From: Microbispora bryophytorum
GTDB lineage: Bacteria > Actinomycetota > Actinomycetes > Streptosporangiales > Streptosporangiaceae
NCBI RefSeq assembly: GCF_006874465.1
Contig: NZ_VIRL01000020.1
Span: 1-64,000, forward strand
Direction of reading: 5' to 3'
Length of the DNA stretch: 64,000 nt
Shown here: positions 5,245 to 19,049 of the stretch, piece by piece
Layout of the letters: the number at the start of each line of letters is the position of its first letter
Position numbering within the stretch: position 1 is the stretch's first letter
Notes under the pieces: generated by a model
The model's input: only the letters and a program-made list of their open reading frames with translations
The model's database searches: none
Told to the model about the DNA's origin: nothing
Made by a program: the position numbers and the translations under genes

Positions 5245-5302
5245 GAAATGTGCCGTTTGGGCACTTCAAGAGATATCGGCGGCGTGTTCGATGGGGGGAA
5301 CC

Positions 5303-5527
5303 ATGGCTGTATCGGCAGACCTGGCGAAGCTGCTCGACCGCGAGTACGAGGACAAGACCCTGGACGAGATCATCAAGGCGCCGGTGGACGCGCTGGCCGG
5401 TGTGAGCGCGGAGGACGCGGAGCTGTTGAAGAAGGCCTTCCACGTCAAGACCGTCGGGGATCTCGGACGCAACAAGTTCTTCCGGGCGGCCACCGCGCTC
5501 GTCGATCTCACCGACAGCAAGAAATAG
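5303..5527 (+). CDS. Small helical protein, possible helix-hairpin-helix fold
   Basis: A 74-residue protein starting MAVSADLAKLL. I chose the ATG at 5303 because GGGGGG lies four bases upstream; an in-frame ATG at 5291 lacks a ribosome site. The central block ALAGVSAEDAELLKKAF followed by VGDLGRNKFFRAA resembles small actinobacterial proteins with a helix-hairpin-helix-like pattern. No function is known to me. Confidence 0.7.
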   Translation: MAVSADLAKLLDREYEDKTLDEIIKAPVDALAGVSAEDAELLKKAFHVKTVGDLGRNKFFRAATALVDLTDSKK

Positions 5528-5556
5528 CCGGATATCTCGCCCGACCGGTGGCCGTT

Positions 5557-5600
5557 GTAGAAGATTTCCATCGCCTTATAGGTTGATGGAAGGTATCTAC
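5557..5600. promoter_or_regulatory. Imperfect 16-bp inverted repeat before the sugar kinase (candidate operator)
   Basis: Left arm GTAGAAGATTTCCATC (5557-5572) and right arm GATGGAAGGTATCTAC (5585-5600) pair at 12 of 16 positions around a 12-base centre. TTGTAG (5555-5560) and TATAGG (5577-5582), 16 bases apart, could be a weak -35/-10 pair inside it. The site ends 12 bases before the preferred kinase start, so a repressor bound here would block the murK-like/nagZ pair. Confidence 0.45.
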
Positions 5601-5612
5601 AAGGGGGCGGCC

Positions 5613-6623
5613 GTGGGGGCTCTGTTCGTCGGCGTGGACGGGGGCGGCACCAGCACGCGCTGCGTCGTGGTCACCGCGTCGGGCGAGATCGCCGGGCGGG
5701 GACGGGCCGGCGGTGCCAACGCGATCTCGGTCCCCGACCCGGTCGCCAACCTGCGCGCCGCGCTACTCGGCGCGCTGGAGGGCCTGGACCCCACACGGGT
5801 CGCCGGGGGCGTGTTCGGTCTGGCCGGGTCCGCCCGCGCCGCCGAGCCCGCCGAGCGGGCCTGGCGGGAGGCCGGGCTCGCCGGGCGCCCGGCGGTGGTC
5901 GCGGACGTGCTCGTCGCCTTCACCGGCGCGACCGATCAGCCCGACGGCGCGGTCCTGGTGGCCGGCACCGGCGCGATCGGCGCCCGCGTCCGCGACCGCC
6001 GCGTCGTACGGCGGGCCGACGGCCTGGGCTGGCTCCTGGGCGACGAGGGCTCGGGCGTGTGGCTGGGCCGCCGGGCCGCCGCCGCGGCGCTGCACGCGAT
6101 CGACGGCCGGGGCGCGCCCACGGTGCTGGTCGCCCGGGTGGCCGAGGCCGTCCTGGGAACGGGGGCGCCCGGCGAGGACGACGGGCCCGCGCTCACCCAG
6201 GCCCTGGTCGCGGCCGTGTACGCGCGGGTCGCCGAGTCGGGGCCCGCCTGGCTGGGCACGCTCGCGCCCGTGGTGGACGCCGCCGCCCGCGAGGGCGACG
6301 AGGTGGCGCGCGGCATCGTCGCCGAGGCGGCACGCAGGCTGTGCCGTACGGCAGGGGTCGTCGTGGGGGAGGGCACTCCTGCACGGGGAGTCCGGGCGGG
6401 GGGTGGCGGAGGGCCGCTGGTGCTCGCGGGGTCGCTGCTGACCGAGCCGACCGAGCTCGCCCATCTGGTCCGGGCCGAGCTGGGCAGGCGGGCCGTGCTG
6501 ATGCGCGCGGGAGACAACGCGGCGGGGGCCGCCGCGCTCGCGGTGCGGTCCGCCCTGCCCGGCGATCCACGCGCCGACGAGGCGCACCGCGTGCTGATCG
6601 AGCAGGGGGGCCCATGGGGCTGA
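5613..6623 (+). CDS. BadF/BadG-type amino-sugar kinase, MurNAc/GlcNAc kinase (MurK/NagK-like)
   Basis: A 336-residue sugar kinase of the BadF/BadG/BcrA ATPase family. Visible motifs are the phosphate-binding GVDGGGTSTRC at residues 7-17, VLVAGTGAIGARV, and LLGDEGSGVWLG, the pattern of GlcNAc kinases and of clostridial MurK, which phosphorylates both MurNAc and GlcNAc at O6. I chose the GTG at 5613 because AAGGGGG lies five bases upstream; the in-frame ATG at 5586 falls inside the upstream inverted repeat and has no ribosome site. It overlaps nagZ by ten bases, the same murK-nagZ pairing known in Clostridium. In a cluster with MurQ and an ABC importer, phosphorylation of imported MurNAc to MurNAc-6-phosphate is the expected job; GlcNAc alone remains possible. 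Confidence 0.82.
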   Translation: MGALFVGVDGGGTSTRCVVVTASGEIAGRGRAGGANAISVPDPVANLRAALLGALEGLDPTRVAGGVFGLAGSARAAEPAERAWREAGLAGRPAVVADVLVAFTGATDQPDGAVLVAGTGAIGARVRDRRVVRRADGLGWLLGDEGSGVWLGRRAAAAALHAIDGRGAPTVLVARVAEAVLGTGAPGEDDGPALTQALVAAVYARVAESGPAWLGTLAPVVDAAAREGDEVARGIVAEAARRLCRTAGVVVGEGTPARGVRAGGGGGPLVLAGSLLTEPTELAHLVRAELGRRAVLMRAGDNAAGAAALAVRSALPGDPRADEAHRVLIEQGGPWG

Positions 6624-8149
6624 GCGGCGGCGAGCTGGACCGGATGGCGATGGCCGTGCTCCAGCCCGGTTTCGAGGGCACGGAACCGCCCGACTGGTTG
6701 CGGCGGGCGCTCGGCGAGGGCCTGGGCGGGGTGGTCCTGTTCGCCCGCAACATCGCCCGCAACATCGCCCGCAACATCGCCCGCGACGTCGCGCGCGACG
6801 TCGCCCGTAACAACGCCCGCGGCTCGGTGGCCGCCCTGGTCGCCGATCTGCGCCGGGAACGGCCGGACGTGGTCGTCGCCGTGGACGAGGAGGGCGGCGC
6901 CGTCACCCGGCTGGAGGCCGCCACCGGCAGCTCCTGGCCGGGCAACCTGGCGCTCGGCGTCGCCGGCGACGAGTCGCTGACCCGCCGGGTGGCGCGGCAG
7001 ATCGGCCGCATGGTCGCCGCCGCCGGCATCACCCTCGACTACGCCCCGGTGGTGGACGTCAACGCCGACCCCCGCAACCCCGTCATCGGCGTGCGTTCCT
7101 TCGGCTCCGACCCCGACGAGGTCGGCCGCCACGGCGCCGCGTGGATCGAGGGGCTGCAGAGCGCGGGGGTGGCCGCCTGCGCCAAGCACTTCCCCGGCCA
7201 CGGGGACACCGTGACCGACTCCCACCTGGCGCTGCCCGCCGTACGCGCCTCCCGCGAGGTGATAGAACGGCGCGACCTGCCGCCGTTCCGGGCGGCCATC
7301 GCGGCGGGCGTGCGCGCCGTGATGTGCGGCCACCTGCTCGTCCCCGCCGTCGACGCGCTCCCCGCGACGCTGAGCCGTGCGGTGCTGACCGGCCTGCTGC
7401 GCGAGGAGCTGGGGTTCGACGGGCTCGTGGTGACCGACGCGATCGAGATGCGCGCGGTCTCCGCCCTGCACGAGCCGGGCGAGATCGCGGTCCGCGCGCT
7501 GGCCGCGGGGGCCGACGCGATCTGCGTCGGCGTGTCCTCGGCCCAGGGGGAGAGCGTCTACGCGCTGCGCGACGCGATCACCGGCGCGGTCCGAGACGGA
7601 CGGCTGACGGACGAACGCCTGGCCGAGGCGGCGGGCCGGGTGCGGGACCTGGCCGCGTGGTACGACGCTCGGGCCGAGGCCAGGGCCGCGGTGGCCCGCG
7701 ACGCCGACGAGGGCCTCGGCCTGGCGGCGGCGACGGCCGCCCTGCGCGCGACCCCGGCGGAGCAGGCGGCGGCGCCGCTGACGAAGGCGCCGCTGGTGGT
7801 GCACCTGGCGGCGCGGCCCAGCCAGGCCGTCGGCCGCGCGACCCCGCTGAAAGTCGGTCAGGCGATCGAGGAGATCCTGCCCGGGACGGCGACGGCCGAA
7901 GTGGACGGCGACGGGCACCTGCCGGATCTGAGCGAGGCGGGGCGCCCGCTCGTGATCGTCGTCCACGACGCCGTACGGCACGCCTGGATGCGGCGGCTCC
8001 TGGAGGAGGCGCTGCGGGCCCGCCCGGACGCGGTCGTGGTCGAGACGGGGATGCCGGGGCCGCCCGCCGGGCGGCTGTATCTCACCACCCACGGTAACTC
8101 CACGGCCTCCGCGCGGGCGGCGGCCCGCTGGCTCACCGGCGGCGCCTGA
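6614..8149 (+). CDS. Beta-N-acetylglucosaminidase, GH3 (NagZ)
   Basis: A 511-residue GH3 enzyme that removes GlcNAc from GlcNAc-MurNAc fragments. The signature KHFPGHG starts at residue 191, the catalytic-loop Asp-Ser-His has His204, and the nucleophile Asp275 lies in VVTDAIEM. A second domain of about 150 residues follows, as in Gram-positive two-domain NagZ. There is no signal peptide, so it should work in the cytoplasm, unlike Bacillus subtilis NagZ, which is secreted. The ATG at 6614 follows AGGGGGG and overlaps the kinase gene. A run of six 12-base repeats inserts Asn-Ile-Ala-Arg-type tetrapeptides after VVLFAR, lengthening a loop near residue 45. Confidence 0.93.
   Translation: MGLSGGELDRMAMAVLQPGFEGTEPPDWLRRALGEGLGGVVLFARNIARNIARNIARDVARDVARNNARGSVAALVADLRRERPDVVVAVDEEGGAVTRLEAATGSSWPGNLALGVAGDESLTRRVARQIGRMVAAAGITLDYAPVVDVNADPRNPVIGVRSFGSDPDEVGRHGAAWIEGLQSAGVAACAKHFPGHGDTVTDSHLALPAVRASREVIERRDLPPFRAAIAAGVRAVMCGHLLVPAVDALPATLSRAVLTGLLREELGFDGLVVTDAIEMRAVSALHEPGEIAVRALAAGADAICVGVSSAQGESVYALRDAITGAVRDGRLTDERLAEAAGRVRDLAAWYDARAEARAAVARDADEGLGLAAATAALRATPAEQAAAPLTKAPLVVHLAARPSQAVGRATPLKVGQAIEEILPGTATAEVDGDGHLPDLSEAGRPLVIVVHDAVRHAWMRRLLEEALRARPDAVVVETGMPGPPAGRLYLTTHGNSTASARAAARWLTGGA
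6746..6817 (+). repeat. Six in-frame 12-bp repeats inside nagZ
   Basis: Units CGCAACATCGCC (three identical copies), CGCGACGTCGCG, CGCGACGTCGCC and CGTAACAACGCC follow without gaps, encoding Arg-Asn-Ile-Ala and Arg-Asp-Val-Ala tetrapeptides. Other NagZ proteins have about one unit at this loop, so roughly 20 residues appear to have been added by tandem duplication. The reading frame is kept. Confidence 0.85.
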
Positions 8150-8197
8150 CCGGTTCGCCGGTCGCTCACGTGAGACGTCTTCGCAGGTAGTGGCCTC

Positions 8198-8244
8198 GGT
8201 AAAAATTAACTCCATCTCCACGTCTGCTCGTGGAAAAAATTGAC
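8198..8244. promoter_or_regulatory. Two direct 13-bp AT-rich boxes, candidate repressor sites
   Basis: GGTAAAAATTAAC (8198-8210) and GGAAAAAATTGAC (8232-8244) match at 11 of 13 positions and lie 34 bases apart, about three helical turns. Each is roughly palindromic around AAWTT and stands out in very GC-rich DNA. The second overlaps the -35 hexamer of the promoter for the transporter operon. RpiR-type regulators such as MurR use AT-rich palindromes, but no regulator gene of that type is in the window. Confidence 0.6.
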
Positions 8245-8269
8245 GGCATCGCGAGCGCGCCCGTATTGT
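8240..8269 (+). promoter_or_regulatory. Sigma70-type promoter for the ABC importer operon
   Basis: TTGACG at 8240-8245, an 18-base spacer and TATTGT at 8264-8269 form a good housekeeping promoter, giving transcription start near 8276 and a leader of about 20 bases with AGGAG before the ATG at 8298. Confidence 0.65.
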
Positions 8270-8297
8270 CCAGGCAATCGGGAACCAGGAGCAGCCC

Positions 8298-10118
8298 ATG
8301 AAGCGACTCGCAGCGATCATGGCGGTGGCGTCCATCGTCACCGTGACCGCCTGCGGCACTACCGGGACGACGGACACCGCCCAGCGGGGCGGCGGCGTGT
8401 ACACCACGATCGACGGCAGCAAGCAGATCAACGCGAGCGCGCCGATCAACCCGTTCAACCCCGTCGGATCGGTCTTCTCGGGATACAACGGCATGGCGCT
8501 GGCGTGGCCCAAGAACGACCCCACCGACCCCAACCAGTTCTACCCGGCCATCGCCAGGAGCTGGAGCATCTCCCCTGACCGGTCGGAGGTCGTCATCCGC
8601 CTGCAGCCGAACGCCAGGTGGTCCGACGGCGTGCCGGTGACCAGCGAGGACGTGCGTGTCTCGATCGGTCTCGCCTACACCCAGGGCGGCACGGCGTACG
8701 CGCTGGACCCGAAGGCGGCCGGCGCCGCCGCCGACATCCAGGTCGTCGACCCCAAGACGATCAGGGTGACACAGGGCGCCAACCGCAGCTCGACGTTCCT
8801 CGCCAACCTGCTGTCGACGGTGGTCGTGCCCGCGCACGTCTTCGGGAAGCTGCTGCCCGCGAACTTCTGGCAGACGCTCAAGGTCGCCCAGCACGGCCAG
8901 GGCGCGGCGGCCGAGAAGGCGAAGAGCCAGATCACCGGGCTGGCGGAGAATGTCATCGCCTTCGACCCCGGCCACGACGTGTCCGCCGGGCCGTTCGTGC
9001 TGGAGCGGGTGAACCCCGGCGCGGCGCTGCTCACGCGCAACCCCTACTTCTACGCCCGGCAGAACATCGTGCCGGACAAGGTGAAGCTCCTGAACTACAC
9101 CGGCAACGAGCAGATCTGGAACTACCTGATCGCCGGCCGGCTGGACAACGCTCCCTTCACCTCCGTGCCCACCGCCGTCCTGGACCGAATCCGCGACGCG
9201 AAGGGCAGCGAGGTGATCAAGGGCTACTCTCCCGTGGCGGTCTCCCTCGCGTTCAACCAGTCGCACAAGCCGTACGACAACGTGCACGTGCGGCGGGCGA
9301 TCGCCTACCTGATCGACCGCGCCCAGGTCACGAAGATCGCCTCTCCGGAGGGCGGCACGCCCGCCGTCACCACCTCCGGCATCCACGCCAAGGCGGCCCG
9401 GGCCTGGCTGGGCGACGCGTTCGACAGCCTGAATCAGTACCGCGTGAGCCCCGCCAAGGCCGACGCCGAGCTGAAGGCGGCCGGCATGACCAAGCGGGGC
9501 GGCCACTGGACCCTGCCCGACGGCAGCCCGTGGAAGGTCCGCATCCACGTGCCCGCGTCGTTCTCCGACTGGGTCGCCGCGGCCAAGTCGATCACCAGCC
9601 AGCTCGGCGACCACGGCATCGACGCGAGCGTGGTCACCGCCGCCGACTACACCCTTTATCTCGGAGAGCTGGCCGACGGCAAGTACGACCTCGGGTTCTG
9701 GCTGATCGGCCTCGGACCCTCGCCGTACAACATCTTCCAGCGGCTGTACGGGCAGGCGAACGGCTGGCAGATGTTCGGCGGCCGGCTGCGGCACGTCGCG
9801 CCGGGCACCGAGGGCAACTGGATGGGCGGGCCGGAGAAGGCCGACGCCGGCGCCGCCGGCACGGTCGACCCCGGCGAGCTGACCAGCAAGCTGAACTTCG
9901 CGTCCCACGACGAGCAGCAGCGCATCGTCGGCGTCCTGGCCAAGGTCGCCAACGAACAGCTCCCGGTCGTCCAGCTCTGGGACTACGTGAACACCCAGTT
10001 CGTGAACACCTCCCGGTACACCGCGTTCCCGCCGGACGACGACGAGTCCCTGCGGCTGTCGTCCGGGGTGTGGATGCAGCTCGGGATGATCAAAAAAGCG
10101 GAGAAGGGGCAGGCATGA
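8298..10118 (+). CDS. ABC importer substrate-binding lipoprotein (peptide/muropeptide type)
   Basis: A 606-residue extracytoplasmic solute receptor of the SBP_bac_5 family (oligopeptide/dipeptide/nickel group). The lipoprotein signal is short and clear: MKRLAAIMAVASIVTVTACG, with the lipidated cysteine at residue 19. It is longer than most family members (500-550). Conserved stretches include PDRSEVVIRLQPNARWSDG, VSAGPFVLERV and RRAIAYLIDRAQV. The gene starts a five-gene transporter operon and overlaps the first permease as ATGA. Its setting among muropeptide enzymes suggests peptidyl-amino-sugar fragments as ligand; this is inference, since the family mainly binds peptides. Confidence 0.85.
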   Translation: MKRLAAIMAVASIVTVTACGTTGTTDTAQRGGGVYTTIDGSKQINASAPINPFNPVGSVFSGYNGMALAWPKNDPTDPNQFYPAIARSWSISPDRSEVVIRLQPNARWSDGVPVTSEDVRVSIGLAYTQGGTAYALDPKAAGAAADIQVVDPKTIRVTQGANRSSTFLANLLSTVVVPAHVFGKLLPANFWQTLKVAQHGQGAAAEKAKSQITGLAENVIAFDPGHDVSAGPFVLERVNPGAALLTRNPYFYARQNIVPDKVKLLNYTGNEQIWNYLIAGRLDNAPFTSVPTAVLDRIRDAKGSEVIKGYSPVAVSLAFNQSHKPYDNVHVRRAIAYLIDRAQVTKIASPEGGTPAVTTSGIHAKAARAWLGDAFDSLNQYRVSPAKADAELKAAGMTKRGGHWTLPDGSPWKVRIHVPASFSDWVAAAKSITSQLGDHGIDASVVTAADYTLYLGELADGKYDLGFWLIGLGPSPYNIFQRLYGQANGWQMFGGRLRHVAPGTEGNWMGGPEKADAGAAGTVDPGELTSKLNFASHDEQQRIVGVLAKVANEQLPVVQLWDYVNTQFVNTSRYTAFPPDDDESLRLSSGVWMQLGMIKKAEKGQA

Positions 10119-11149
10119 CGCACGCCGTTCCGGGGCGTCCCCGGCTGGGCGCGGTCGCCAGGAAGATCGGCGGCCATCTGGGCCGCGGCCTGGCCATGAT
10201 CTGGGTCGTCGCCACGATCAGCTTCGTCATCATCCGGGAGATCCCCGGCGATCCCGTGCTCGGGCAGTACGAGAGCCTGATCCAGAAGGGCATGTCGCCC
10301 GAGCAGGCCGAACGGGCCACCGCCGTCCTGTACGGCTTCCTGCCGACCGGCAACCTGTGGCAGCAGTACGTCGGCTACATGGGCTCGCTGCTCCACCTCG
10401 ACCTCGGGCGGTCACTCAGCACACCAGGCGTGGAGGTGACCACGCTCATCGGCCACGCGGCCCGGTGGACCGTGCTCCCGGTCCTCGCCGGCACGCTGCT
10501 GAGCTTCCTGCTCGGCGTCACCATGGGCGTCTACGCCGCGATCAAGCGGTCGGGCAAGCTGGGCGACGTGCTCGCGCTGTCCGGCTCGCTGCTGCACGGC
10601 GTGCCGGTGTACGTCATCGGCCTGCTGCTCACCGCGATCTTCGCCACGCTGTGGCCGATCATGCCGTCGGGCGGGCCGGTGGACGTCGAGTTCGTCCCCG
10701 GCTTCAACGCCGGCTACATCGGCTCGCTGGTGCACCACGCCGTGCTGCCGGTCGTCACGTACACGCTGGCCAGCTACGGCGGGTGGATCCTCGCGATGAA
10801 GTCGAACGTCGTCGCCGTGCTCGGCGACGACTTCATCCTCGCGGCCGAACTACGCGGCCTGCGGCGCGGCTTCGTGTTCCGGTATCTCGCGCGCAACGCG
10901 ATCCTGCCGCTGTTCACGATCCTCGCCCTGTCGATCGGCATGCTGTTCGGCGGCTCGATCTTCATCGAGGAGATCTTCAACTACCCGGGCCTCGGCCTGC
11001 TGCTCGTCAACAGCATCAGCAGTCGCGACTACGCGCTGATGGGAGGCACGTTCCTGGTGATCACGGTGGGCATCGTCGTCGCCAACATCGCCGCCGACCT
11101 GCTGTACACGGCGATCGACCCCCGGGTCAGGAGCGGAGGCGCGGCATGA
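10115..11149 (+). CDS. ABC importer permease 1 (DppB/OppB-like)
   Basis: A 344-residue inner-membrane permease with six hydrophobic segments. It has the DppB-family ISFVIIREIPGDPV at the first membrane segment and the ATPase-coupling loop EAA-type sequence near AAELRGLRRGFVFRYLARNA. It overlaps the receptor gene upstream and permease 2 downstream by four bases each (ATGA), so the importer is made as one translationally coupled set. Confidence 0.88.
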   Translation: MTHAVPGRPRLGAVARKIGGHLGRGLAMIWVVATISFVIIREIPGDPVLGQYESLIQKGMSPEQAERATAVLYGFLPTGNLWQQYVGYMGSLLHLDLGRSLSTPGVEVTTLIGHAARWTVLPVLAGTLLSFLLGVTMGVYAAIKRSGKLGDVLALSGSLLHGVPVYVIGLLLTAIFATLWPIMPSGGPVDVEFVPGFNAGYIGSLVHHAVLPVVTYTLASYGGWILAMKSNVVAVLGDDFILAAELRGLRRGFVFRYLARNAILPLFTILALSIGMLFGGSIFIEEIFNYPGLGLLLVNSISSRDYALMGGTFLVITVGIVVANIAADLLYTAIDPRVRSGGAA

Positions 11150-12078
11150 CCGTCATCGTCAACCCGGAGGGGGCGATCAGCCCCGGGGCCGTGCCGGCCG
11201 GGACGACGCGGGCCACGCTGCGGCGCAACTTCTGGCGCGGGGTGTGGCGGGTGCTGCGGCGCAAGCCCAGCCGCATGGCCGGGGTGGGCATCGTCGTGCT
11301 GTTCGCGGTCATCGGTGTGGCCGGGCCGCTGCTCTACCCCGCGCAGCTGCCGCGCGACGACAACGCGCTGTACGCGCCGCCGAGCCTGGCCCACCCCTTC
11401 GGCACCGACTTCGAGGGCACCGACGTGCTCGCACTGGTCGTCACCGGCGCGCGCTACGTGCTGCTCACCGGCCTGGCCACGGCCGTCATCACGGTCGCGC
11501 TCGGCACGCTCATCGGGCTGGTCGCGGGCTTCCACCGCGGCCGGTGGGACACGCTGCTGATGCGCCTGACCGACATGAACCTCGCGATTCCCGGCCTGCC
11601 GCTGCTGCTCGTGCTGTCCACGGTGTGGAAGTTCGAGAGCCCGCTGGAGATGGGCCTGGTGCTCGGGGTGCTCGGCTGGGGCGGCATCGCCCGCGCCGTG
11701 CGGTCGCAGACGCTGTCGTTGCGCGAGCGCGGCTTCATCGAGGCCGCCCGCGGCCTCGGCCTGCCCACCCGGCACATCATCGGCCGCGAACTGCTGCCGA
11801 GCATGGCGCCCTACATCGCGATGAACATGCTCATCGCCGTCACCGGCGCGGTGTACGCCCAGGTGGGCCTGTTCTTCCTCGGCGTGCTGCCGTTCGAGTC
11901 GAACAACTGGGGCGTGATGCTGAACCTCGCGGTGTTCAACGGCGGGGCGCTCACCACTCCCGCCGCGCTGCCGTACCTGCTGGCCCCGCTGATCGCGATC
12001 CTGCTGCTCACTCTGGGCATCGTGCTGATCGTGGACGCGATGGACGAGATCTTCAATCCCCGCCTGCGGGAGGAGTAG
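11146..12078 (+). CDS. ABC importer permease 2 (DppC/OppC-like)
   Basis: A 310-residue permease. The N-terminus carries the cytoplasmic stretch and first membrane segment typical of DppC (RRKPSRMAGVGIVVLFAVIG), and the coupling loop reads LRERGFIEAARGLGLPTRHI. Its hydrophobic profile gives six membrane segments. It pairs with permease 1 to form the channel. The next gene starts six bases after its stop. Confidence 0.88.
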   Translation: MTVIVNPEGAISPGAVPAGTTRATLRRNFWRGVWRVLRRKPSRMAGVGIVVLFAVIGVAGPLLYPAQLPRDDNALYAPPSLAHPFGTDFEGTDVLALVVTGARYVLLTGLATAVITVALGTLIGLVAGFHRGRWDTLLMRLTDMNLAIPGLPLLLVLSTVWKFESPLEMGLVLGVLGWGGIARAVRSQTLSLRERGFIEAARGLGLPTRHIIGRELLPSMAPYIAMNMLIAVTGAVYAQVGLFFLGVLPFESNNWGVMLNLAVFNGGALTTPAALPYLLAPLIAILLLTLGIVLIVDAMDEIFNPRLREE

Positions 12079-12083
12079 CCCCC

Positions 12084-13115
12084 ATGACCGCTCACACGGC
12101 CGCACGTCACACGGCCGCACCGGGGGTCCGGATCCGGGACCTCACGGTCGTCTACAAGACGCCCGCCGGCGAGCTGCCCGCCGTACGCGGCGTCGACCTC
12201 GCCCTGGCCCCCGGCACGATCACCGGCGTCGTCGGCGAGTCGGGTTCGGGCAAGTCGACGCTCGCGTTGTCGCTGCTCAACGCGGTGCAGCCGCCCGGCA
12301 GGATCGCGGCGGGCAGCGTCGAGATCGACGGCCTCGGCGACGTGCTGACGCTGCGGGGCGAGGACCTGCGCCGCACCCGCGGCCGCCAGGTCGGATACGT
12401 CTTCCAGGCCGCGCAGAACTCGCTGAACCCGCTGAAGACCATCGGCAAGCAGCTGCTCGACCTCGGCCGCTCCCACGACGTGGAGGACCTGCGGGGGCTG
12501 GTGCGCGACGCCAAGGACCTGCTGGCCCGCATGGGCATGGACGGCGCCCGGGTGCTCGACTCCTACCAGCACGAGCTGTCCGGCGGCATGCGCCAGCGGG
12601 TCGGCATCATGCTCGCGCTCGTCCTGAACGCCAAGGTCGTCGTTCTGGACGAGCCGACCACCGCCCTCGACATGATCACGCAGGCCACGATCCTGCGGAT
12701 CATCCGCGAGGTCCACGAGGAGCGGGCGCTCACCACGCTCGTCATCACCCACGACGTCGGCGCGGTGGCCGAGGTCGCCGACAGCCTCGCCGTCATGTAC
12801 GGCGGCCGGGTGGTCGAGCACGGCCCGGTGACCGAGGTGCTCGGGAGCGCCCGGCACCCGTACACCCAGGGCCTGATCAGGGCGATCCCGCGGCTGTCCG
12901 GCGATCTGTCGCTGGCCCGGGCGCTGCCCGGCCGCCCGCCGACGCTCGGGACGCTGCCCACGCAGGGCTGCGTGTTCCGCGAGCGCTGCGAGCGGCGGAT
13001 GGAGGTGTGCGAGACCGACGAGCCCATGTCCGTCACGCAGGACGGCCGCACCGTCGCCTGTCACGCCGCCGACCGCCACCTCACCCTGGTCAAGCGGAAG
13101 GAGGAGTTCGTGTGA
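12084..13115 (+). CDS. ABC importer ATPase 1 (DppD-like)
   Basis: A 343-residue ATPase with Walker A GESGSGKST, the oligopeptide-type QNSLNPLKT Q-loop region, signature LSGGMRQRVG, Walker B VVVLDEPTTALD and H-loop VITHD. The C-terminal extension has cysteines in GCVFRERCERRMEVC, the iron-sulphur-type motif common in Dpp/Opp ATPases. Energises import with ATPase 2. The N-terminus contains a short THTAARHTAA duplication. Confidence 0.9.
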   Translation: MTAHTAARHTAAPGVRIRDLTVVYKTPAGELPAVRGVDLALAPGTITGVVGESGSGKSTLALSLLNAVQPPGRIAAGSVEIDGLGDVLTLRGEDLRRTRGRQVGYVFQAAQNSLNPLKTIGKQLLDLGRSHDVEDLRGLVRDAKDLLARMGMDGARVLDSYQHELSGGMRQRVGIMLALVLNAKVVVLDEPTTALDMITQATILRIIREVHEERALTTLVITHDVGAVAEVADSLAVMYGGRVVEHGPVTEVLGSARHPYTQGLIRAIPRLSGDLSLARALPGRPPTLGTLPTQGCVFRERCERRMEVCETDEPMSVTQDGRTVACHAADRHLTLVKRKEEFV

Positions 13116-14143
13116 TCACGGGGACCGGCATCACCAAGATCTTCAAGCAGCGTGGCAGCGTGCTCGGCGCCCGCGAGGTGCCCGCGCTGCGCGGCGTGGA
13201 CTTCGCCGTCGCCAAGGGCGGCGCCGTCTCGTTCATCGGAGAGTCGGGCAGCGGCAAGACCACGCTCGGCCGGATCGTCGCCGGCCTGGAGACCCACGAC
13301 GCGGGCGAGATCGTCATCGACGGCGTGCCGATGTCCACGCTGAGCCACCGCAGGCGGCAGCCGTACTTCCGCCGGATCCAGCTCATCCACCAGGACCCCT
13401 ACTCGGCGCTCAACCCCACCCGGACGATTCACCAGACGCTGGAGGCGCCGCTGCGGCTGCGCGCCCGGCAGGCGGGCCGCCCGCGCTCGTGGGTCGACGG
13501 GCGGGCCGCGGAGCTGCTGGCGATGGTCGGCATCGACCCCGGCTACGTGCTCCCGCGCTACCCTCACCAGCTGTCGGGCGGCATGCGCCAGCGCGTGGTG
13601 ATCGCCCGCGCGCTCACCATGGACCCCGAGGTGCTCGTCGCCGACGAGGCCGTCTCGATGATCGACGTGTCGCTGCGCCTGGGCATCCTCGCCCTGCTGA
13701 AGGACCTGCGCGAGCGCCTCGGCGTGGGCGTGCTGTTCATCACCCACGACATCGCCACCGCCCGCTACATCGGCGACGACGGCGAGCTGTACGTGCTCTA
13801 CCGCGGCCAGGTCGTCGAGCGGGGCGCCACAGAGAAGATCATCTCGGACCCGGTCCATCCGTACACGCAGTCGCTGCTGTCGGCGATCCCGGTGCTGCAC
13901 GGCCTGGAACGGCCGGGCGCCGAGCGGGTCGTGCCGAGGGAGATGCAGCGGGAGGGCGAGCCCGACGGCGGCTGCCTGTTCGCCCGGCGCTGCCCGTTCA
14001 GCACCGAGCGCTGCGAGAACGAGATGCCCGTGCTGGGCCGCGACGGAGGGCCGGAACAGGAGGCCGGGCAGGAGGGTGGGCAGGAGTACGCCTGCTTCCA
14101 CCCCAGGCGGCGCAGCGTGATCCCGGTGGGGGTGGGCGAGTGA
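13112..14143 (+). CDS. ABC importer ATPase 2 (DppF-like)
   Basis: A 343-residue ATPase with Walker A GESGSGKTT, Q-loop region QLIHQDPYSALNP, signature LSGGMRQRVV, Walker B VLVADEAVSMID and H-loop FITHD. Walker B ends in DEAVSMID where DEPTSALD is usual, a common DppF variant in actinobacteria. The C-terminal cysteine cluster (CLFARRCPFSTERC) is present. Near the end a 12-base repeat (14057-14086) gives Gln-Glu-Ala-Gly/Gln-Glu-Gly-Gly. The GTG start overlaps ATPase 1 and follows GGAAGGAGG. Confidence 0.9.
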   Translation: MITGTGITKIFKQRGSVLGAREVPALRGVDFAVAKGGAVSFIGESGSGKTTLGRIVAGLETHDAGEIVIDGVPMSTLSHRRRQPYFRRIQLIHQDPYSALNPTRTIHQTLEAPLRLRARQAGRPRSWVDGRAAELLAMVGIDPGYVLPRYPHQLSGGMRQRVVIARALTMDPEVLVADEAVSMIDVSLRLGILALLKDLRERLGVGVLFITHDIATARYIGDDGELYVLYRGQVVERGATEKIISDPVHPYTQSLLSAIPVLHGLERPGAERVVPREMQREGEPDGGCLFARRCPFSTERCENEMPVLGRDGGPEQEAGQEGGQEYACFHPRRRSVIPVGVGE

Positions 14144-15036
14144 CGGACATCCTTCCGGTCGAGGCGGACGGGGCGCTGGAGCGCCTGGCCGCCGCCGCGC
14201 TGTGGGCCGACGCCGACGACGCCGCGCTGGTCGTACGGCGGCTGGCCGACCCGCCGGGGGAGCGGGCGTGGACGGTCCTGGCCACCCCGGACCGGGACGG
14301 CGCCGTGTTCACCTCGATCGGCGCGGACGGCGCCGGTCACATCGACCTGATCGCCGTGGATCCCGCCGCCCGGGGCCGGGGGATCGGGCGGGCGCTCGTG
14401 GGCGCGGCCGAGGAGTGGATGCGGGCGCGCGGCGCGGCCGAGGCGAGGTTCGCCGGCAACCCGCCCTGCTACGCCTGGCCCGGGATCGACGTGCGCTACA
14501 CCCCGGCCGCCTGCCTGGCCGAGAGCCTGGGTTACGAGCGCTACCGCGTGGCCTGGAACATGACGGCCGACCTGCCCGCCCGCTACGACGAGGCCGAGCA
14601 CGAGGCCGACCTGGCCCGGCTCGCCGCGGCCGGGGTCACCGTCGCCGCGGCGCCTGCTCACGGTGACCCGGCCGGAGAGCGGGCGCAGGTCGCGGCCTTC
14701 GTCCGCGAGCAGTGGAACGACAAATGGGCCTGGGAGGCCGAGCAGGCGACCGGTCTGCATTACGCCTTCCGCGACGGGGCGGCGCGCGACGGGGAGATCC
14801 TCGGCTTCGCCGCCTGGGGCGCCCGGCCGCTGTGGTTCGGGCCGATGGGCACGGCCGAGGCCGCCCGTGGGCTCGGCGTGGGCCGGGTGCTGCTGCGCCG
14901 CTGCCTCGACGAGCAGGCCGCCGCCGGGCAGACGTCCGCGCAGATCGGCTGGGTGGGCCCGCTCCGCTTCTACTCCCGGGCGGTGGGCGCCCGCGCCGAG
15001 CGGGTGTTCTGGCTCTACCGCCGCGCGCTGGGCTGA
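14140..15036 (+). CDS. Double-domain GNAT acetyltransferase of the muropeptide cluster
   Basis: A 298-residue protein with two GNAT folds. The first has the acetyl-CoA motif VDPAARGRGIGRALV near residue 75; the second has EAARGLGVGRVLLRRCL near residue 245. The GTG start overlaps the stop of ATPase 2 by four bases, so it belongs to the importer operon, and its stop lies two bases from the convergent namZ stop. The acceptor is unknown. In this setting an amino sugar or peptide amine released from cell-wall fragments is a reasonable guess, not shown by sequence. Confidence 0.82.
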   Translation: MTDILPVEADGALERLAAAALWADADDAALVVRRLADPPGERAWTVLATPDRDGAVFTSIGADGAGHIDLIAVDPAARGRGIGRALVGAAEEWMRARGAAEARFAGNPPCYAWPGIDVRYTPAACLAESLGYERYRVAWNMTADLPARYDEAEHEADLARLAAAGVTVAAAPAHGDPAGERAQVAAFVREQWNDKWAWEAEQATGLHYAFRDGAARDGEILGFAAWGARPLWFGPMGTAEAARGLGVGRVLLRRCLDEQAAAGQTSAQIGWVGPLRFYSRAVGARAERVFWLYRRALG

Positions 15037-15038
15037 TG

Positions 15039-16145
15039 TCAGCCGTACAGCAGTTCACCCTGGGGCGGGCCCGGCGGGGGGCACAGCCCGCGGGGGTCGC
15101 GGCCCGCCTCCAGGTGCTCGCGCAGCGAGGCCGAGCCCCACAGCAGGTCGAGGAACGGCTCGCAGGCGAAGTCGCCCGGATACAGGCTGCGCAGCACGTG
15201 CAGGACGGACACACCCGTCAGCACCGGCGGGAAGGCCTCCCGGTCGGTCACGTGCAGCTGCACGCCGCGCACCACGACGCCCGCGTGCCTGCCGAACGTC
15301 GGGGTGAACCACGTGTCGCGGAAGCGCACCCCGGGAAGGCCGAGATCGTTCAGCGCGGCGGCGAACCGGCCGTCCGCGTACGGCGCGCCGACCAGCTCGA
15401 ACGGCCGGGTCGTGCCCCGGCCCTCGGCGGCGTTCACCCCCTCCAGCAGCCCGGTGCCGGGGTAGACCAGGGCGGTGTCGAGGGTCGGCATGTTGGCCGA
15501 CGGCAGCACCCAGGGCAGCCCGGTGCGGTCGAAGTGCCACTGCCTGCGCCAGCCCTCCACGCACACCACGTCCAGCTCGGCGCCGATCGCGCGGTTGGCG
15601 AACACGGCGATCTCGCCCGGCGTGAGGCCGTGCCGTACGGGCAGGGCGGCGCGGCCGACGAAGCTCGCGTAGGCCGGGTCGAGCACCGGGCCCTCGGCCA
15701 CCGCGCCGCCGATCGGATTGGGCCGGTCGAGCACGGTGAACCGCAGCCCGAGCCGGGCGGCCGATCCCATCAGGTCGTACATCGTCCAGACGTAGGTGTA
15801 GAAGCGCGCGCCCACGTCGCACACGTCGAAGACGAGCGCCTCCACCCCGGACGACGCGACCAGCGCGTCCAGGTCGCCGCCGGTCCGCCGGTAGGTGTCG
15901 AGCACGGGCAGGCCGGTGACCGGGTCGGCGGTGTCGCCCTCGCCGCCGCCCGCCTGGGCCGTGCCGCGCAGGCCGTGCTCGGGGCTGAACAACGTGGTCA
16001 CGGGCACTCCGGCGGCCAGCAGGGCCGGTGCGGCGTGGGTCAGATCGGGCAGGACTCCGGTGGGGTTGGTGATGAGCCCGACCCGCACCCGTCCGGTTCC
16101 CGGCGTGCTCGTCAGCCGCTCCAGCCCCGTACGCACACGATTCAT
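15039..16145 (-). CDS. Exo-beta-N-acetylmuramidase NamZ (DUF1343, GH171)
   Basis: A 368-residue member of the DUF1343 family, whose Bacillus subtilis member YbbC/NamZ cleaves MurNAc from the non-reducing end of peptidoglycan fragments. The family block FSPEHGLRG is present with the likely catalytic Glu56, followed by LVFDVCDVGARFYTYVWTM, VLDRPNPIGG and YPGTGLLEGVNAAEGRGTT. No signal peptide is visible, so it is probably cytoplasmic, in contrast to the secreted Bacillus enzyme. It is the only cluster gene on the minus strand, convergent with the GNAT gene and divergent from murQ with only 24 bases between the starts. Confidence 0.9.
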   Translation of the reverse strand: MNRVRTGLERLTSTPGTGRVRVGLITNPTGVLPDLTHAAPALLAAGVPVTTLFSPEHGLRGTAQAGGGEGDTADPVTGLPVLDTYRRTGGDLDALVASSGVEALVFDVCDVGARFYTYVWTMYDLMGSAARLGLRFTVLDRPNPIGGAVAEGPVLDPAYASFVGRAALPVRHGLTPGEIAVFANRAIGAELDVVCVEGWRRQWHFDRTGLPWVLPSANMPTLDTALVYPGTGLLEGVNAAEGRGTTRPFELVGAPYADGRFAAALNDLGLPGVRFRDTWFTPTFGRHAGVVVRGVQLHVTDREAFPPVLTGVSVLHVLRSLYPGDFACEPFLDLLWGSASLREHLEAGRDPRGLCPPPGPPQGELLYG

Positions 16146-16169
16146 CTAGCACTCCGAAGCTGAGGAACC

Positions 16170-17072
16170 ATGACCCACTCACTCGCCGCTCTCGCCACCG
16201 AACAGAGCGATCCCCGCTTCAGCGGGATCGACACGCTGCCCACGGAGGAGATCGCCCGGCTCATGAACGCCGCCGACGCCGCCGTCCCGGCCGCCGTGGG
16301 CCGGGCCGTCCCGGCGATCGCCGCGGCCGTCGACGCGATCGCCGCGCGGATGGCCGACGGGGGCAGGCTCCTCTACGTGGGCGCGGGCACCTCCGGGCGG
16401 CTCGCGGTGCTCGACGCCTCCGAGTGCCCGCCGACATTCGGCACGCACCCCGACCTGGTCCAGGGCATCATCGCGGGCGGCGAGGCCGCGCTGGTGCGCT
16501 CGGTCGAGGGCGCCGAGGACGACGCGGAGGCGGGCGCAGCCGTGATCCGCGGCAAGCACGTCGGCCCGCTCGACTCCGTGGTGGGCATCTCCGCCAGCGG
16601 GCGCGCGCCGTACGTCGTCGCGGCGGTCGAGCAGGCCCGGCGGCTCGGCGCGCTGACCGTGGGCCTGGCCTGCAACACCGGCACCCCGCTCGCACGCGCC
16701 GCCGACCACGCCGTCGAGGTCATCGTGGGGCCGGAGGTGGTCACCGGCTCGACCCGCCTCAAGGCGGGCACGGCCCAGAAGCTGGTCCTCAACATGATCT
16801 CGACGATCACGATGATCAGGTCGGGGCGGACGTACGGGAACTTCATGGTCGACGTCGTGGCCAGCAACTCCAAGCTCGTCGACCGGGCGGCCCGCATCGT
16901 CTCCGACATCACCGGCACGCAGGTGCCGCGGGCCCGGGAGGTCCTGGAGAGCGCGGGACGGGACGTGAAGACGGCCGTCGTGATGATCGAGCGCGGGGTG
17001 GGCGCCGACGACGCGCGGGCGCTGCTCGCGGCCCACGGCAACCGGCTCGGCCCGGCGCTGCACAGTGCATGA
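16170..17072 (+). CDS. N-acetylmuramic acid 6-phosphate etherase MurQ
   Basis: A 300-residue SIS-domain lyase that removes D-lactate from MurNAc-6-phosphate to give GlcNAc-6-phosphate. The family motifs are intact: LLYVGAGTSGRLAVLD, the catalytic Glu85 in ASECPPTFG and Glu116 in EGAEDD, and NTGTPLA. Its length matches the family. A GAGGAA ribosome site precedes the ATG. MurQ needs a phosphorylated substrate, so the BadF-type kinase upstream is a natural partner. It overlaps the amidase-like gene by eight bases. Confidence 0.94.
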   Translation: MTHSLAALATEQSDPRFSGIDTLPTEEIARLMNAADAAVPAAVGRAVPAIAAAVDAIAARMADGGRLLYVGAGTSGRLAVLDASECPPTFGTHPDLVQGIIAGGEAALVRSVEGAEDDAEAGAAVIRGKHVGPLDSVVGISASGRAPYVVAAVEQARRLGALTVGLACNTGTPLARAADHAVEVIVGPEVVTGSTRLKAGTAQKLVLNMISTITMIRSGRTYGNFMVDVVASNSKLVDRAARIVSDITGTQVPRAREVLESAGRDVKTAVVMIERGVGADDARALLAAHGNRLGPALHSA

Positions 17073-18126
17073 CCAGATGCCCGGGCCTGACCAGACGCCT
17101 CAGCACATGCTGGAGGACGTCCTGCGGGCGGCCGTGCCCGAGGTCGCCTCGGCGGCGGTCGCCGCGATCGCCGTGGACGGGCGTACGGTCGCCGCGGCCG
17201 CCGTGGGCGAAGCCCTGCGGTACGCCGGTCCGTCCGGGGGGCTGCGGGCGCGGCGGCCGGCCGTGGCGATGGACGCGCTCTTCGACATCGCCTCCCTGAC
17301 CAAGATGTTCACGGCCGCGGTGCTCGTCTCACTGGCCCAGCAGGGCGCGCTCGACCTCGACGAGCCGGTGGCCGCCCGGCTGCCCCGGTTCTACGGGGAC
17401 CGGCCCGAGATCACGGTACGGCACCTGCTGACGCATTCGGCGGGCCTGCCCGCGAGCCGCCGGGTGGAAAAGGAGCCGGAGGAGGCCCGCTGGGACCTGG
17501 TGCTGTCCACTCCGGTGCAGGGGCCGCCGGGGACGCACCTCTACTCGGACGTCGGCATGATCACGGCCGGGCGGCTGGCGGAGGCCGCCGGCGGTGCGCC
17601 GCTGGACGTGCTCGTGCGCGAGCGGGTCACCGGGCCGCTCGGGCTCGGCGCCACGACGTACGGGCCGGTCGAGCCGGGCCGGGCCGTCGCCACCGAGTTC
17701 AAGCGCGGCATCTGCGTGCGGGGTGAGGTGCACGACGAGACGGCCCACGCGCTGGGCGGCGTGGCCGGGCACGCCGGGCTGTTCTCCACCGCCGCCGACC
17801 TCGTGCGTTTCGGCGAGGCGCTGCGCACCGGCGGCGGCCCGGTGCTGTCTCCCGCCTGGACCGCCGAGATGCTGCGTGACCAGGGCGTGCCGGGCGCCGC
17901 CTTCCGCCAGGGGCTCGGCGTGCGCATCGACGACCCGGCGATCGTGGGGCCGCTCGCGGGCGCGTTCGGCCACTCGGGCTTCACCGGCACGTCGCTGGTC
18001 GTCGATCCCGCCCGCCGGCTGACCGTCGTGCTGCTCACCAACAACGTCCACCCGCTGCGGGGCCGCCCCGGCATCCGCGACCTCCGGCACGCCGTCGCGG
18101 CCGAGGCCCTGCGCCTGGCCGGCTGA
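17065..18126 (+). CDS. Serine beta-lactamase-fold hydrolase, AmiE/YbbE-like muramyl amidase
   Basis: A 353-residue class C beta-lactamase-fold protein with the Ser77-x-x-Lys80 motif in IASLTKMF, Tyr160 in LYSDVG and HSGFTG near residue 303. In Bacillus subtilis the equivalent gene beside murQ, nagZ and namZ is amiE (ybbE), a member of this fold that cuts the MurNAc-L-alanine amide bond; position and fold make that the best call here. No signal peptide is seen. It overlaps murQ; an ATG at 17077 is an alternative start. A D,D-peptidase or esterase role cannot be ruled out. Confidence 0.78.
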   Translation: MHDQMPGPDQTPQHMLEDVLRAAVPEVASAAVAAIAVDGRTVAAAAVGEALRYAGPSGGLRARRPAVAMDALFDIASLTKMFTAAVLVSLAQQGALDLDEPVAARLPRFYGDRPEITVRHLLTHSAGLPASRRVEKEPEEARWDLVLSTPVQGPPGTHLYSDVGMITAGRLAEAAGGAPLDVLVRERVTGPLGLGATTYGPVEPGRAVATEFKRGICVRGEVHDETAHALGGVAGHAGLFSTAADLVRFGEALRTGGGPVLSPAWTAEMLRDQGVPGAAFRQGLGVRIDDPAIVGPLAGAFGHSGFTGTSLVVDPARRLTVVLLTNNVHPLRGRPGIRDLRHAVAAEALRLAG

Positions 18127-18184
18127 GCCCGGCGGATGTTTGATCCTCCTCGTCCGGGTCAGTAGGCGGTCAGTCCGGCAGACG

Positions 18185-18220
18185 GACCGATCCACCGACC
18201 GATCCACCGACCGATCCACC
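18185..18220. repeat. Three perfect 12-bp tandem repeats
   Basis: GACCGATCCACC occurs three times in succession just before the ribosome site (GAGGAGAGGAG) of the DUF1206 gene, in the gap after the salvage cluster. The unit itself has no obvious palindrome. Confidence 0.9.
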
Positions 18221-18236
18221 GAGGAGAGGAGCCGCG

Positions 18237-19049
18237 ATGACGACCGCCCACCAGGCCGGCCGCCGTCTCGAAGGGGCGGCCCGCAAAGCGGCCGACCACC
18301 CTGTCCTGGAGAAGCTCGCCAAGGTCGGGTTCGCCGCCCGGGGCGTCCTGTACGCGATCATCGGCCTGGTCGCCCTCCAGATCGCCTTCGGCGGGGGAGG
18401 GGAGGCCGACAAGAGCAGCGCGCTCCAGATCGTCCGCGACGCGCCCCTGGGCGACCCCCTGCTGTGGGTCATGGCCGTCGGCCTGGCCGCACTGACGATC
18501 TGGCAGGTCTCCGAGGCCGTCTGGGGCCGGCCGGGGGTCAAGGAGCGCGTGGAGGCCGTGGCCAAGGCCGTCGTCTACGCCGCCCTGGTGTTCTCGATGG
18601 TGGCGCTGCTCACGCGCAACAAGGCCGCCTCCTCGTCCGACAGCCAGTCGCAGGACGTCACCAAGACGCTGTTCGAGCTGCCCGGCGGCCAGTTCCTGGT
18701 CGGCCTGATGGCGCTGGGCGTGATCGCCCTCGGCGTCTTCTGGATCTACGAGGGCTGGACCGAGAAGTTCATGAAGGACATGTACGTGACCGGGCCCCGT
18801 GCCCGCGGTGTCGTCGTCAAGCTCGGCAAGGCCGGCTACATCGCCCGCGGCGTCATCGCGCTGGCCGCCGGCGCCCTGATCGGCCAGGCCGCCCTCACCT
18901 ACGACCCCGACAAGGCGGCCGGCATCGACGGCGCGCTCAAGGCGCTCGCCGACACCCCGGCCGGGCCGTGGCTGCTCGTCGTGGTCGCCGTCGGTCTGGT
19001 GCTGTTCGCCGTCTACTGCTTCGCGGAGGCCCGCTGGCACCGGGTGTGA
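18237..19049 (+). CDS. DUF1206 six-helix membrane protein
   Basis: A 270-residue membrane protein with three repeats of a two-helix unit, each starting with a Gly-Phe-Ala-Ala-Arg-Gly-like pattern (KVGFAARGVLYAIIGLVAL is the first, KAGYIARGVIALAAGALIG the third). This is the DUF1206 family of unknown function, common in actinobacteria. It is preceded by a strong ribosome site and is convergent with the TetR gene. Confidence 0.88.
   Translation: MTTAHQAGRRLEGAARKAADHPVLEKLAKVGFAARGVLYAIIGLVALQIAFGGGGEADKSSALQIVRDAPLGDPLLWVMAVGLAALTIWQVSEAVWGRPGVKERVEAVAKAVVYAALVFSMVALLTRNKAASSSDSQSQDVTKTLFELPGGQFLVGLMALGVIALGVFWIYEGWTEKFMKDMYVTGPRARGVVVKLGKAGYIARGVIALAAGALIGQAALTYDPDKAAGIDGALKALADTPAGPWLLVVVAVGLVLFAVYCFAEARWHRV

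What the first reader, a model, noticed from the sequence alone, without database searches (positions are those of the whole stretch)
5557..18126. Complete cytoplasmic muropeptide salvage cluster built around a peptide-type ABC importer
Seen: murK-like kinase, nagZ, five-part Dpp-like importer, double GNAT, namZ, murQ and an AmiE/YbbE-like serine hydrolase in one 12.5-kb block. Known: in Bacillus the same enzymes (NagZ, AmiE, NamZ) are secreted and MurNAc enters by the MurP PTS, which phosphorylates it. Inference: here none of the enzymes has a signal peptide and there is no PTS, so larger peptidyl-muropeptides are imported whole, digested inside, and the BadF-type kinase replaces the PTS step before MurQ. 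I know of no described actinobacterial system with this set in one locus.
Basis: partly seen in the sequence, partly recalled or inferred. Interest (0 to 1): 0.82.

Follow-up and report, generated by a model that had tools for sequence, protein, structure and literature searches.

The report
Actinobacterial cell-wall sugar salvage cluster
A soil actinobacterium carries, side by side, a membrane importer and the enzymes needed to break down and reuse cell-wall sugars inside the cell, a plausible candidate for the still unknown route by which such bacteria take these sugars back in.

Summary
The cluster is real: eleven genes at 5613-18126 (BadF-type kinase, NagZ, five-part Opp/Dpp-type ABC importer, tandem GNAT, NamZ, MurQ, class-C serine hydrolase) in a Microbispora-like genome. 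The enzymes have no leaders; all 15 NamZ rows under 55% identity have Tat-like ones. In 48 named cluster-type loci the GNAT and five importer genes occur in 48 of 48, MurQ in 46 of 46 and hydrolase in 44 of 44 with room; NagZ and kinase are looser (16 and 15 of 48). The genome holds a second importer-MurQ block beside MurR. The kinase's best solved relative by profile is Clostridium MurK. Correction: the receptor is nearest to chitobiose and mannobiose receptors, not peptide receptors, so a GlcNAc-MurNAc disaccharide, with or without peptide, is likelier cargo than large peptidyl-muropeptides. Cargo and substrates are inferred. Against: one kinase residue disfavours free MurNAc, and in a wider sample only 1 of 11 importer-type murQ loci has the kinase near. 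New variant of a known kind; it bears on the unknown MurNAc transporter of actinobacteria.

The parts
5613..6623 (+). BadF-type sugar kinase, MurK/NagK-like (start GTG 5613 conserved in relatives; 5583/5586 possible)
   Evidence: PF01869 94.7 bits; best PDB profile match 8zo3 MurK of C. acetobutylicum; DGGGT, AD97-98, GDEGSG motifs
6614..8149 (+). NagZ-type GH3 beta-N-acetylglucosaminidase, no signal peptide, overlaps the kinase stop
   Evidence: PF00933 247.9 bits; KHFPGHGDTVTDSH loop and VVTDAIEM motif; best PDB match GH3 beta-N-acetylglucosaminidase 6k5j
8145..8297 (+). conserved promoter/operator region of the importer operon (GTAAAAATTAACT, GGAAAAAATTGACG, CCCGTATTGTCCAGGCA)
   Evidence: blocks conserved in 12 sequences of 3 genera; element in 15 of 51 sbp upstream rows; one place in the genome at up to 2 mismatches; the one sigma-70-like site found in 5200-18400, shuffles mean 0.2
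8298..10118 (+). SBP_bac_5 receptor lipoprotein
   Evidence: PF00496 175.5 bits; lipobox VTAC; nearest solved relatives sugar receptors (on a weak model)
10115..11149 (+). Opp/DppB-type permease
   Evidence: PF00528
11146..12078 (+). Opp/DppC-type permease
   Evidence: PF00528, PF12911
12084..13115 (+). DppD/OppD-type ATPase
   Evidence: PF00005, PF08352
13112..14143 (+). DppF/OppF-type ATPase
   Evidence: PF00005, PF08352
14140..15036 (+). tandem GNAT N-acetyltransferase, possibly glucosamine/glucosaminide acetyltransferase
   Evidence: two GNAT stretches; weak match to RmNag 4zm6, E 0.0012, no stretch significant on its own; 48 of 48 named loci
15039..16145 (-). NamZ-type exo-N-acetylmuramidase, no signal peptide, antisense within the gene row
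   Evidence: PF07075 225.2 and PF20732 145.7 bits; in-frame TAG directly before ATG
16170..17072 (+). MurQ, MurNAc-6-phosphate etherase
   Evidence: TIGR00274 369.4 bits, cut-off 302; NF003915 401.3 bits, cut-off 168
17065..18126 (+). class-C serine hydrolase, AmiE- or PBP4B-like, no signal peptide
   Evidence: PF00144 197.2 bits; first NCBIfam match PBP4B, below cut-off; SLTK, YSD, HSG motifs

Best explanation
A cell-wall sugar salvage cluster. The lipoprotein receptor captures a small peptidoglycan fragment outside, most likely a GlcNAc/MurNAc disaccharide with or without a short peptide, and the Opp/Dpp-type permeases and ATPases import it unphosphorylated. Inside, the tandem GNAT re-acetylates glucosamine units, NagZ removes non-reducing GlcNAc, NamZ removes non-reducing MurNAc, and the serine hydrolase cuts the lactyl-peptide amide (or trims the peptide). 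The BadF kinase makes the 6-phosphates of MurNAc and/or GlcNAc, replacing the phosphorylation that a MurP PTS would do on entry. MurQ turns MurNAc-6-P into GlcNAc-6-P and D-lactate; GlcNAc-6-P goes to NagA. Shown here: gene content, lack of leaders, conservation, relatedness of each protein. Inferred: cargo, kinase substrate, GNAT substrate, hydrolase bond.
For: Families confirmed. Cytoplasmic location: no leaders here; a Tat-like start (RR/RK then a hydrophobic stretch, most upstream start) is seen in 15 of 15 NamZ rows (14 genes) under 55% identity against 4 of 111 at 55% or more. Importer tied to MurQ: named loci; 36 of 48 NamZ genes of an order sample directly divergent from murQ; a second sbp-prmB-prmC-atpD-atpF-murQ block beside murR in the same genome, receptors 63% identical; ten loci without NamZ; distantly related Opp-type genes beside murQ in L139 and L171. 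Kinase: top profile match among PDB sequences is MurK 8zo3 (E 9.2e-32); kinase near 14 of 40 murQ genes, never with MurP. Receptor: the top 11 PDB sequences are TM1223, Vibrio chitin-oligosaccharide receptors (several are variants of one protein) or 8i5j, before any named Opp/Dpp receptor. N204 and D365 of VhCBP, which hold O3/O4 of the non-reducing GlcNAc, align with N270 and D424, invariant in 30 receptors, and N409, which binds O3 of the second GlcNAc, with an invariant Leu; MurNAc carries its lactyl ether at O3, so this pattern suits GlcNAc-MurNAc. NagA is present.
Against: NagZ and kinase are adjacent in only 16 and 15 of 48 cluster-type loci; in the 40-locus sample 1 of 11 Opp-type loci has the kinase within 8 kb and 13 of 14 kinase loci have no Opp-type importer. 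Relatives that lack NamZ keep importer, GNAT and MurQ, so NamZ is dispensable. In the kinase D136 stands where Tannerella MurK has S133 (G in C. acetobutylicum MurK and human NagK), a negative charge near the expected lactyl carboxylate; GlcNAc may be the main substrate. In the receptor W363 of VhCBP becomes F422, N409 L469, F411 Gly or Ala; the sites of F437 and W513 did not align. The receptor model is poor (pLDDT 59). The GNAT matches RmNag only weakly, and in its first GNAT domain, which the authors think is not catalytic.
Confidence: 0.68

Rival explanations
1. One reading: the importer brings in large peptidyl-muropeptides (GlcNAc-MurNAc-tetrapeptide or longer) whole, and the peptide part is what the receptor recognises.
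For: Transporter class is Opp/Dpp; a serine hydrolase of the AmiE/PBP4B kind is conserved in 44 of 44 testable named loci; an ABC importer, YejBEF-YepA, imports muropeptides in Agrobacterium (PMC9790009 abstract); the two Nonomuraea clusters that I read have an M20-type gene near the receptor gene (the L047 one scanned).
Against: The receptor profile ranks murein-peptide receptor MppA (E 2e-9), YejA (2e-7) and DppA (1e-11) far below the sugar receptors (1e-27 to 1e-22).
Confidence: 0.2
2. A chitin or other amino-sugar oligosaccharide importer whose products merely share kinase and NagZ with wall recycling; MurQ and NamZ are neighbours of convenience.
For: Receptor closest to chitobiose and mannobiose receptors (70 on a weak model); kinase may prefer GlcNAc.
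Against: MurQ beside NamZ and importer in 46 of 46 cluster-type loci with room (the class is defined by murQ next to namZ, so the telling part is the importer in 48 of 48) and again in a second block with MurR; MurQ and NamZ act on muramic acid (established family knowledge).
Confidence: 0.08
3. The importer carries free MurNAc (and/or released peptide) produced by other, secreted enzymes, and cytoplasmic NagZ/NamZ serve internal turnover products.
For: Several cluster-type relatives lack nearby NagZ or NamZ; a second Planotetraspora locus and one genome of our genus also have a nagZ-namZ-hydrolase set whose NamZ has a Tat-like leader.
Against: This genome has one NamZ only, the cytoplasmic one; NagZ, GNAT and NamZ make most sense if oligosaccharides reach the cytoplasm.
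Confidence: 0.12

Closest known systems
Clostridium acetobutylicum MurK (MurNAc/GlcNAc kinase) and its glucosamine/glucosaminide N-acetyltransferase
   Same: BadF-type kinase whose best profile match in the PDB is this MurK; an acetyltransferase thought to re-acetylate wall sugars before beta-N-acetylglucosaminidase (PMC4680927 passages); phosphorylation inside instead of by PTS.
   Different: About 24% identity in the fold alignment of the kinases. The clostridial gene order is recalled, not read: both 2011 papers are not held; I know their titles from reference lists. No clostridial locus was compared here.
Bacillus subtilis murQ-murR-murP-amiE-nagZ-ybbC(namZ)
   Same: MurQ, NagZ, NamZ and an AmiE-like hydrolase together (PMC5061867 section 6; that ybbC is namZ is recalled).
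   Different: There extracellular NagZ/AmiE and a MurP PTS; here no leaders, no PTS, an ABC importer and a kinase. A Bacillus-like set occurs in Kribbella, Actinopolymorpha and a second Planotetraspora locus.
Agrobacterium YejBEF-YepA muropeptide importer
   Same: ABC importer used for peptidoglycan recycling (abstract); same superfamily by recall.
   Different: Receptor is not YejA-like (YepA itself not compared); adjacent enzymes not compared.
Vibrio chitooligosaccharide-binding protein VhCBP and Thermotoga TM1223/TM1226
   Same: Same SBP family and closest solved relatives (70 on a weak model); N204 and D365 conserved.
   Different: Of five contact residues aligned with confidence, two are identical (N204, D365), one aromatic is exchanged (W363 to F) and two are lost (N409, F411); cargo unknown.
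Streptomyces coelicolor SCO4305-4308 (murQ, murR)
   Same: Actinobacterial MurQ recycling, MurNAc-6-P shown in a murQ mutant, no MurP there (PMC5061867).
   Different: In the passages read, no importer, kinase or NamZ is named there; SCO4305 and SCO4306 are called unknown.

Membership tests
MurQ (MurNAc-6-P etherase) | score above TIGR00274 cut-off | tested here: met
   369.4 bits against 302
NamZ exo-N-acetylmuramidase | both NamZ domains | tested here: met
   PF07075 and PF20732 above cut-off
NagZ-type GH3 | His-Asp dyad loop KHFPGHGD...DSH and Asp nucleophile motif | tested here: met
   positions 191 and 272
NagZ-type GH3 | NCBIfam beta-N-acetylhexosaminidase model NF003740 above cut-off | tested here: not met
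   188 bits, cut-off 207; so 'NagZ-type', not a proven equivalog
MurK (MurNAc kinase) | nearest characterised relative is a MurNAc kinase | tested here: met
   8zo3 first by profile; third by Foldseek E-value, highest TM-score of the 50 listed; single-sequence phmmer puts Sulfolobus hexokinase 2e2n first
MurK (MurNAc kinase) | space for the lactyl ether (S133-P134-L135, T94 of Tannerella MurK) | tested here: inconclusive
   A97 small like T94; G137, L138 fit; D136 does not
MurK (MurNAc kinase) | phosphorylates MurNAc | not testable with these tools
   needs enzyme assay
Bacillus-type extracellular muropeptide rescue | secreted enzymes plus MurP PTS | tested here: not met
   no leaders; no PTS in the locus
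Sugar-binding SBP of the VhCBP/TM1223 group | ranks with this group | tested here: met
Sugar-binding SBP of the VhCBP/TM1223 group | conserved sugar contacts | tested here: inconclusive
   N204, D365 kept; W363 to F; N409, F411 lost; S221 and F222 aligned with low confidence; F437, W513 not aligned
Glucosamine/glucosaminide N-acetyltransferase | tandem GNAT similar to a characterised one | tested here: inconclusive
   RmNag 4zm6 E 0.0012, short stretch in its first GNAT domain, none significant on its own
AmiE amidase versus PBP4B | nearest characterised relative | tested here: inconclusive
   PBP4B model 117 bits, below cut-off 385; AmiE sequence not compared

The most novel reading that the evidence does not exclude
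The importer is a dedicated ABC transporter for the intact GlcNAc-MurNAc disaccharide: GlcNAc sits in a chitobiose-type first site (N270, D424), MurNAc in a second site rebuilt to take its lactyl ether. It exists in two probably differently regulated copies and is the missing MurNAc uptake route of MurP-lacking actinobacteria; its resemblance to peptide transporters has hidden it.
Probability: 0.4. Interest if true: 0.75.

Novelty: new variant of a known kind. Interest (0 to 1): 0.57.

Why it matters
How actinobacteria without a MurP PTS take up muramic acid is open: MurP is missing in S. coelicolor although MurNAc is recycled through MurQ (PMC5061867), and a 2026 preprint posits an unknown MurNAc transporter in mycobacteria (PMC13041923 section 19). 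This cluster names a testable transporter with its enzymes. In a sample of 40 actinobacterial murQ loci three kinds of uptake system stand near murQ (Opp-type ABC 11, CUT1-type ABC 7, MurP-like PTS 6), and the kinase is not seen beside the PTS.

Tried and rejected
A fused receptor-permease protein in L070, L071 and L074 (1250-1251 aa) was rejected: the reading contains a stop after the receptor, an artefact of my ORF extension.

A crude hydropathy score did not show leaders in the hydrolases (the higher mean is in the cluster type), so for NagZ and hydrolase the argument rests on start positions. The length of sequence before the NamZ core overlaps between the two types and was not used. The Tat-like count depends on the start chosen: with the most upstream start 4 of 111 and 15 of 15 rows, with the start nearest to the window's own 0 of 111 and 2 of 15. 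The 111 rows (89 distinct) include the other-type Streptomyces and Kribbella genes; L007 and L156 are one gene. A looser pattern gave 15 of 111 and 13 of 15.

NCBIfam models for peptide receptors and permeases gave no family above cut-off, so they do not decide the cargo. The receptor structure was too poor (pLDDT 59, pTM 0.52) to place ligands; its Foldseek result is only a hint.

The exclusion of kinase and MurP (0 of 6) is only p about 0.06 by simple counting and the loci are related. The 80 named loci (best 80 of 223) were found with the window's own NamZ and are biased to close relatives; the cluster type was defined by murQ near namZ, or by a contig end there plus GNAT. Of the 40 murQ loci, 16 are all the other genomes with a match in a phylum sample of 149 (17 with our own) and 24 were hand-picked over genera of the order sample; 10 of the 11 Opp-type loci are from those 24. 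The percentages are not frequencies in nature. The murQ list is cut off, so weak murQ copies may be missing. Of 51 receptor rows, L066 and L154 are one gene and the window is not among them. Genome-wide counts of NagZ were not made.

Full report
What is there. The window lies in contig C50 of a 7.85-Mb genome; its NamZ is 86-93% identical to those of nine Microbispora records, so the organism is a Microbispora or very close. Eleven genes run from 5613 to 18126: kinase, nagZ, receptor, two permeases, two ATPases, tandem GNAT, namZ (opposite strand), murQ and a serine hydrolase. Most neighbours overlap by a few bases or nearly touch; 148 bases separate nagZ from the receptor gene. All carry the expected domains.

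Where the enzymes act. NamZ begins at an ATG directly after an in-frame stop, NagZ begins inside the end of the kinase gene, the hydrolase overlaps murQ, and I see no leader on them; the receptor is a lipoprotein. As a contrast, 15 of 15 NamZ rows (14 genes) under 55% identity have a Tat-like start, against 4 of 111 rows at 55% or more (most upstream starts). Sets of nagZ, namZ, hydrolase and murQ whose NamZ has such a start are seen in Kribbella (L137), Actinopolymorpha (L140), Planotetraspora (second locus, L142) and one genome of our own genus (L156). Both designs exist in these bacteria; this cluster is of the inside type.

Conservation. Of 80 named NamZ loci, 48 are of the cluster type, from six genera by title (one record is titled [Actinomadura] parvosata). 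With an identity threshold of 50% the GNAT and all five importer genes are there in 48 of 48, murQ in 46 of 46 and the hydrolase in 44 of 44 loci with enough sequence, NagZ in 16 and the kinase in 15 of 48 (flanks of at most 10 kb). The other 32 loci (mostly Streptomyces and Kribbella) have neither this receptor nor murQ, and show no permease hit of this type. In an order sample 46 of 150 genomes, ours included, have NamZ; 36 of 48 NamZ genes other than ours lie within 260 bases of a divergent murQ. Ten loci lack namZ yet keep receptor to GNAT and murQ (L174-L176, L178-L181, L183, L184, L197), the hydrolase in eight of them, MurR within 8 kb of murQ in six; one (L180) also has nagZ and kinase. 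In Planotetraspora (L041) a MurR/RpiR regulator lies between nagZ and the receptor. In the Streptosporangium (L066) and Sinosporangium (L080) genomes a 62% and a 59% identical kinase lie about 30 and 25 kb from murQ on the same contig, the first with an in-frame TGA in the match; in six Nonomuraea genomes the best kinase is only 40-45% identical and elsewhere.

A second copy. The same genome has receptor 2 (63% identical), permeases, ATPases, murQ 2 and a convergent murR in one block, and an anhydroMurNAc kinase about 6 kb on (L150). M. catharanthi has the same genes (L136). So this class of importer is paired with murQ twice.

Uptake systems near murQ. In 40 murQ loci of Actinomycetota: Opp-type ABC 11, CUT1-type ABC 7, MurP-like PTS 6, BadF kinase 14, MurR 22, NagZ 7, NamZ 1 (selection described under tried and rejected). 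Kinase and PTS never occur together there; kinase and Opp-type importer occur together once (L180), which weakens the idea of a fixed pair. Distantly related Opp-type genes (27-42% identical) stand beside murQ in L171 and, outside this sample, in Phytoactinopolyspora (L139).

The proteins. Kinase: a profile of 11 relatives finds MurK of C. acetobutylicum first in the PDB; Foldseek lists it third by E-value with the highest TM-score of the 50 shown, 0.72 (model pLDDT 74). The lactyl-ether site known from Tannerella MurK (PMC10465942 section 8 part 1) is matched at A97, G137 and L138 but not at D136. Receptor: the profile finds TM1223 and the Vibrio chitin receptors (several of them variants of one protein) at E 1e-27 to 1e-22; OppA-type receptors follow at 6e-19, DppA at 1e-11, MppA at 2e-9, YejA at 2e-7. 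In VhCBP, N204 and D365 share O4 of the non-reducing GlcNAc, N204 also binds O3, and D365 costs most binding energy when lost; N409 binds O3 of the second GlcNAc (PMC8449061 passages). These align with N270, D424 and L469, each invariant in 30 receptors. A kept first site and a second site without the O3 contact fit a GlcNAc-MurNAc ligand, whose second sugar carries the lactyl ether at O3 (chemistry recalled); this is inference. GNAT: its best PDB match is RmNag, a fungal GH3 enzyme fused to a tandem GNAT with glucosamine N-acetyltransferase activity (PMC4680927 passages), but weakly and in the domain that the authors think is not catalytic; the same chain is the third match of our NagZ.

Control elements. 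The region before the receptor is conserved in blocks over 12 sequences. Of 51 receptor rows, 15 have GTAAAAATTAWCTYC upstream, 35 have TGAAGGAAAGTTRCA, none has both and one has neither. In this genome the first element occurs once, before receptor 1; the second kind occurs twice, before receptor 2 and between murR and a GHL10 gene, which suggests a MurR operator at locus 2. The two importers are thus probably regulated differently.

Mechanism and judgement. The most likely pathway is given under best explanation. Established family knowledge: NagZ, NamZ and MurQ reactions. Tool results: presence, start positions, synteny, relatedness. Inference: cargo, kinase and GNAT substrates, hydrolase bond. 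NagA is present.

Literature. Searches listed no description of such an actinobacterial locus; most subscription papers are not held. Papers seen: PMC5061867 (passages, section 6), PMC10465942 (passages, section 8 part 1), PMC12680351 (passages), PMC13041923 (outline with abstract, passages, section 19), PMC8449061 (passages), PMC4680927 (passages), PMC9790009 (abstract and outline). The two 2011 clostridial papers are known to me only from reference lists and recall.

Noticed in passing
window 15039-16170: namZ lies antisense inside an otherwise one-directional gene row, with 24 bases between the start codons of namZ and murQ; in ten relatives without namZ gnat is followed by murQ on the same strand. 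This may be a non-contiguous operon with antisense control.
   Followed up: partly
L150 2069-15848 (own genome, contig C71): Second receptor-permease-ATPase-murQ block with murR, a GHL10 glycosidase and an anhydroMurNAc kinase; two candidate MurR sites found nowhere else in the genome at up to one mismatch.
   Followed up: partly
L079, L097, L102: Another kind of NamZ locus in Streptomyces, Kribbella and Actinocatenispora: namZ near a different tandem GNAT (30-34% identical to ours), with CUT1-type permease genes in L079 and L097 by reading, and a PIG-L type deacetylase in L097 and, by reading, L102.
   Followed up: partly
   Followed up: partly
L153 3085-14001: Nonomuraea antri genome: murQ-like gene, BadF-like kinase, a CUT1-like permease by reading and a leaderless NagZ near a 717-aa protein that looks to me like an alpha-N-acetylglucosaminidase (not tested).
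   Followed up: no
window 4288-5244 and 19812-20756: Two similar-looking short-chain dehydrogenase genes stand at some distance on either side of the cluster (by reading).
   Followed up: no
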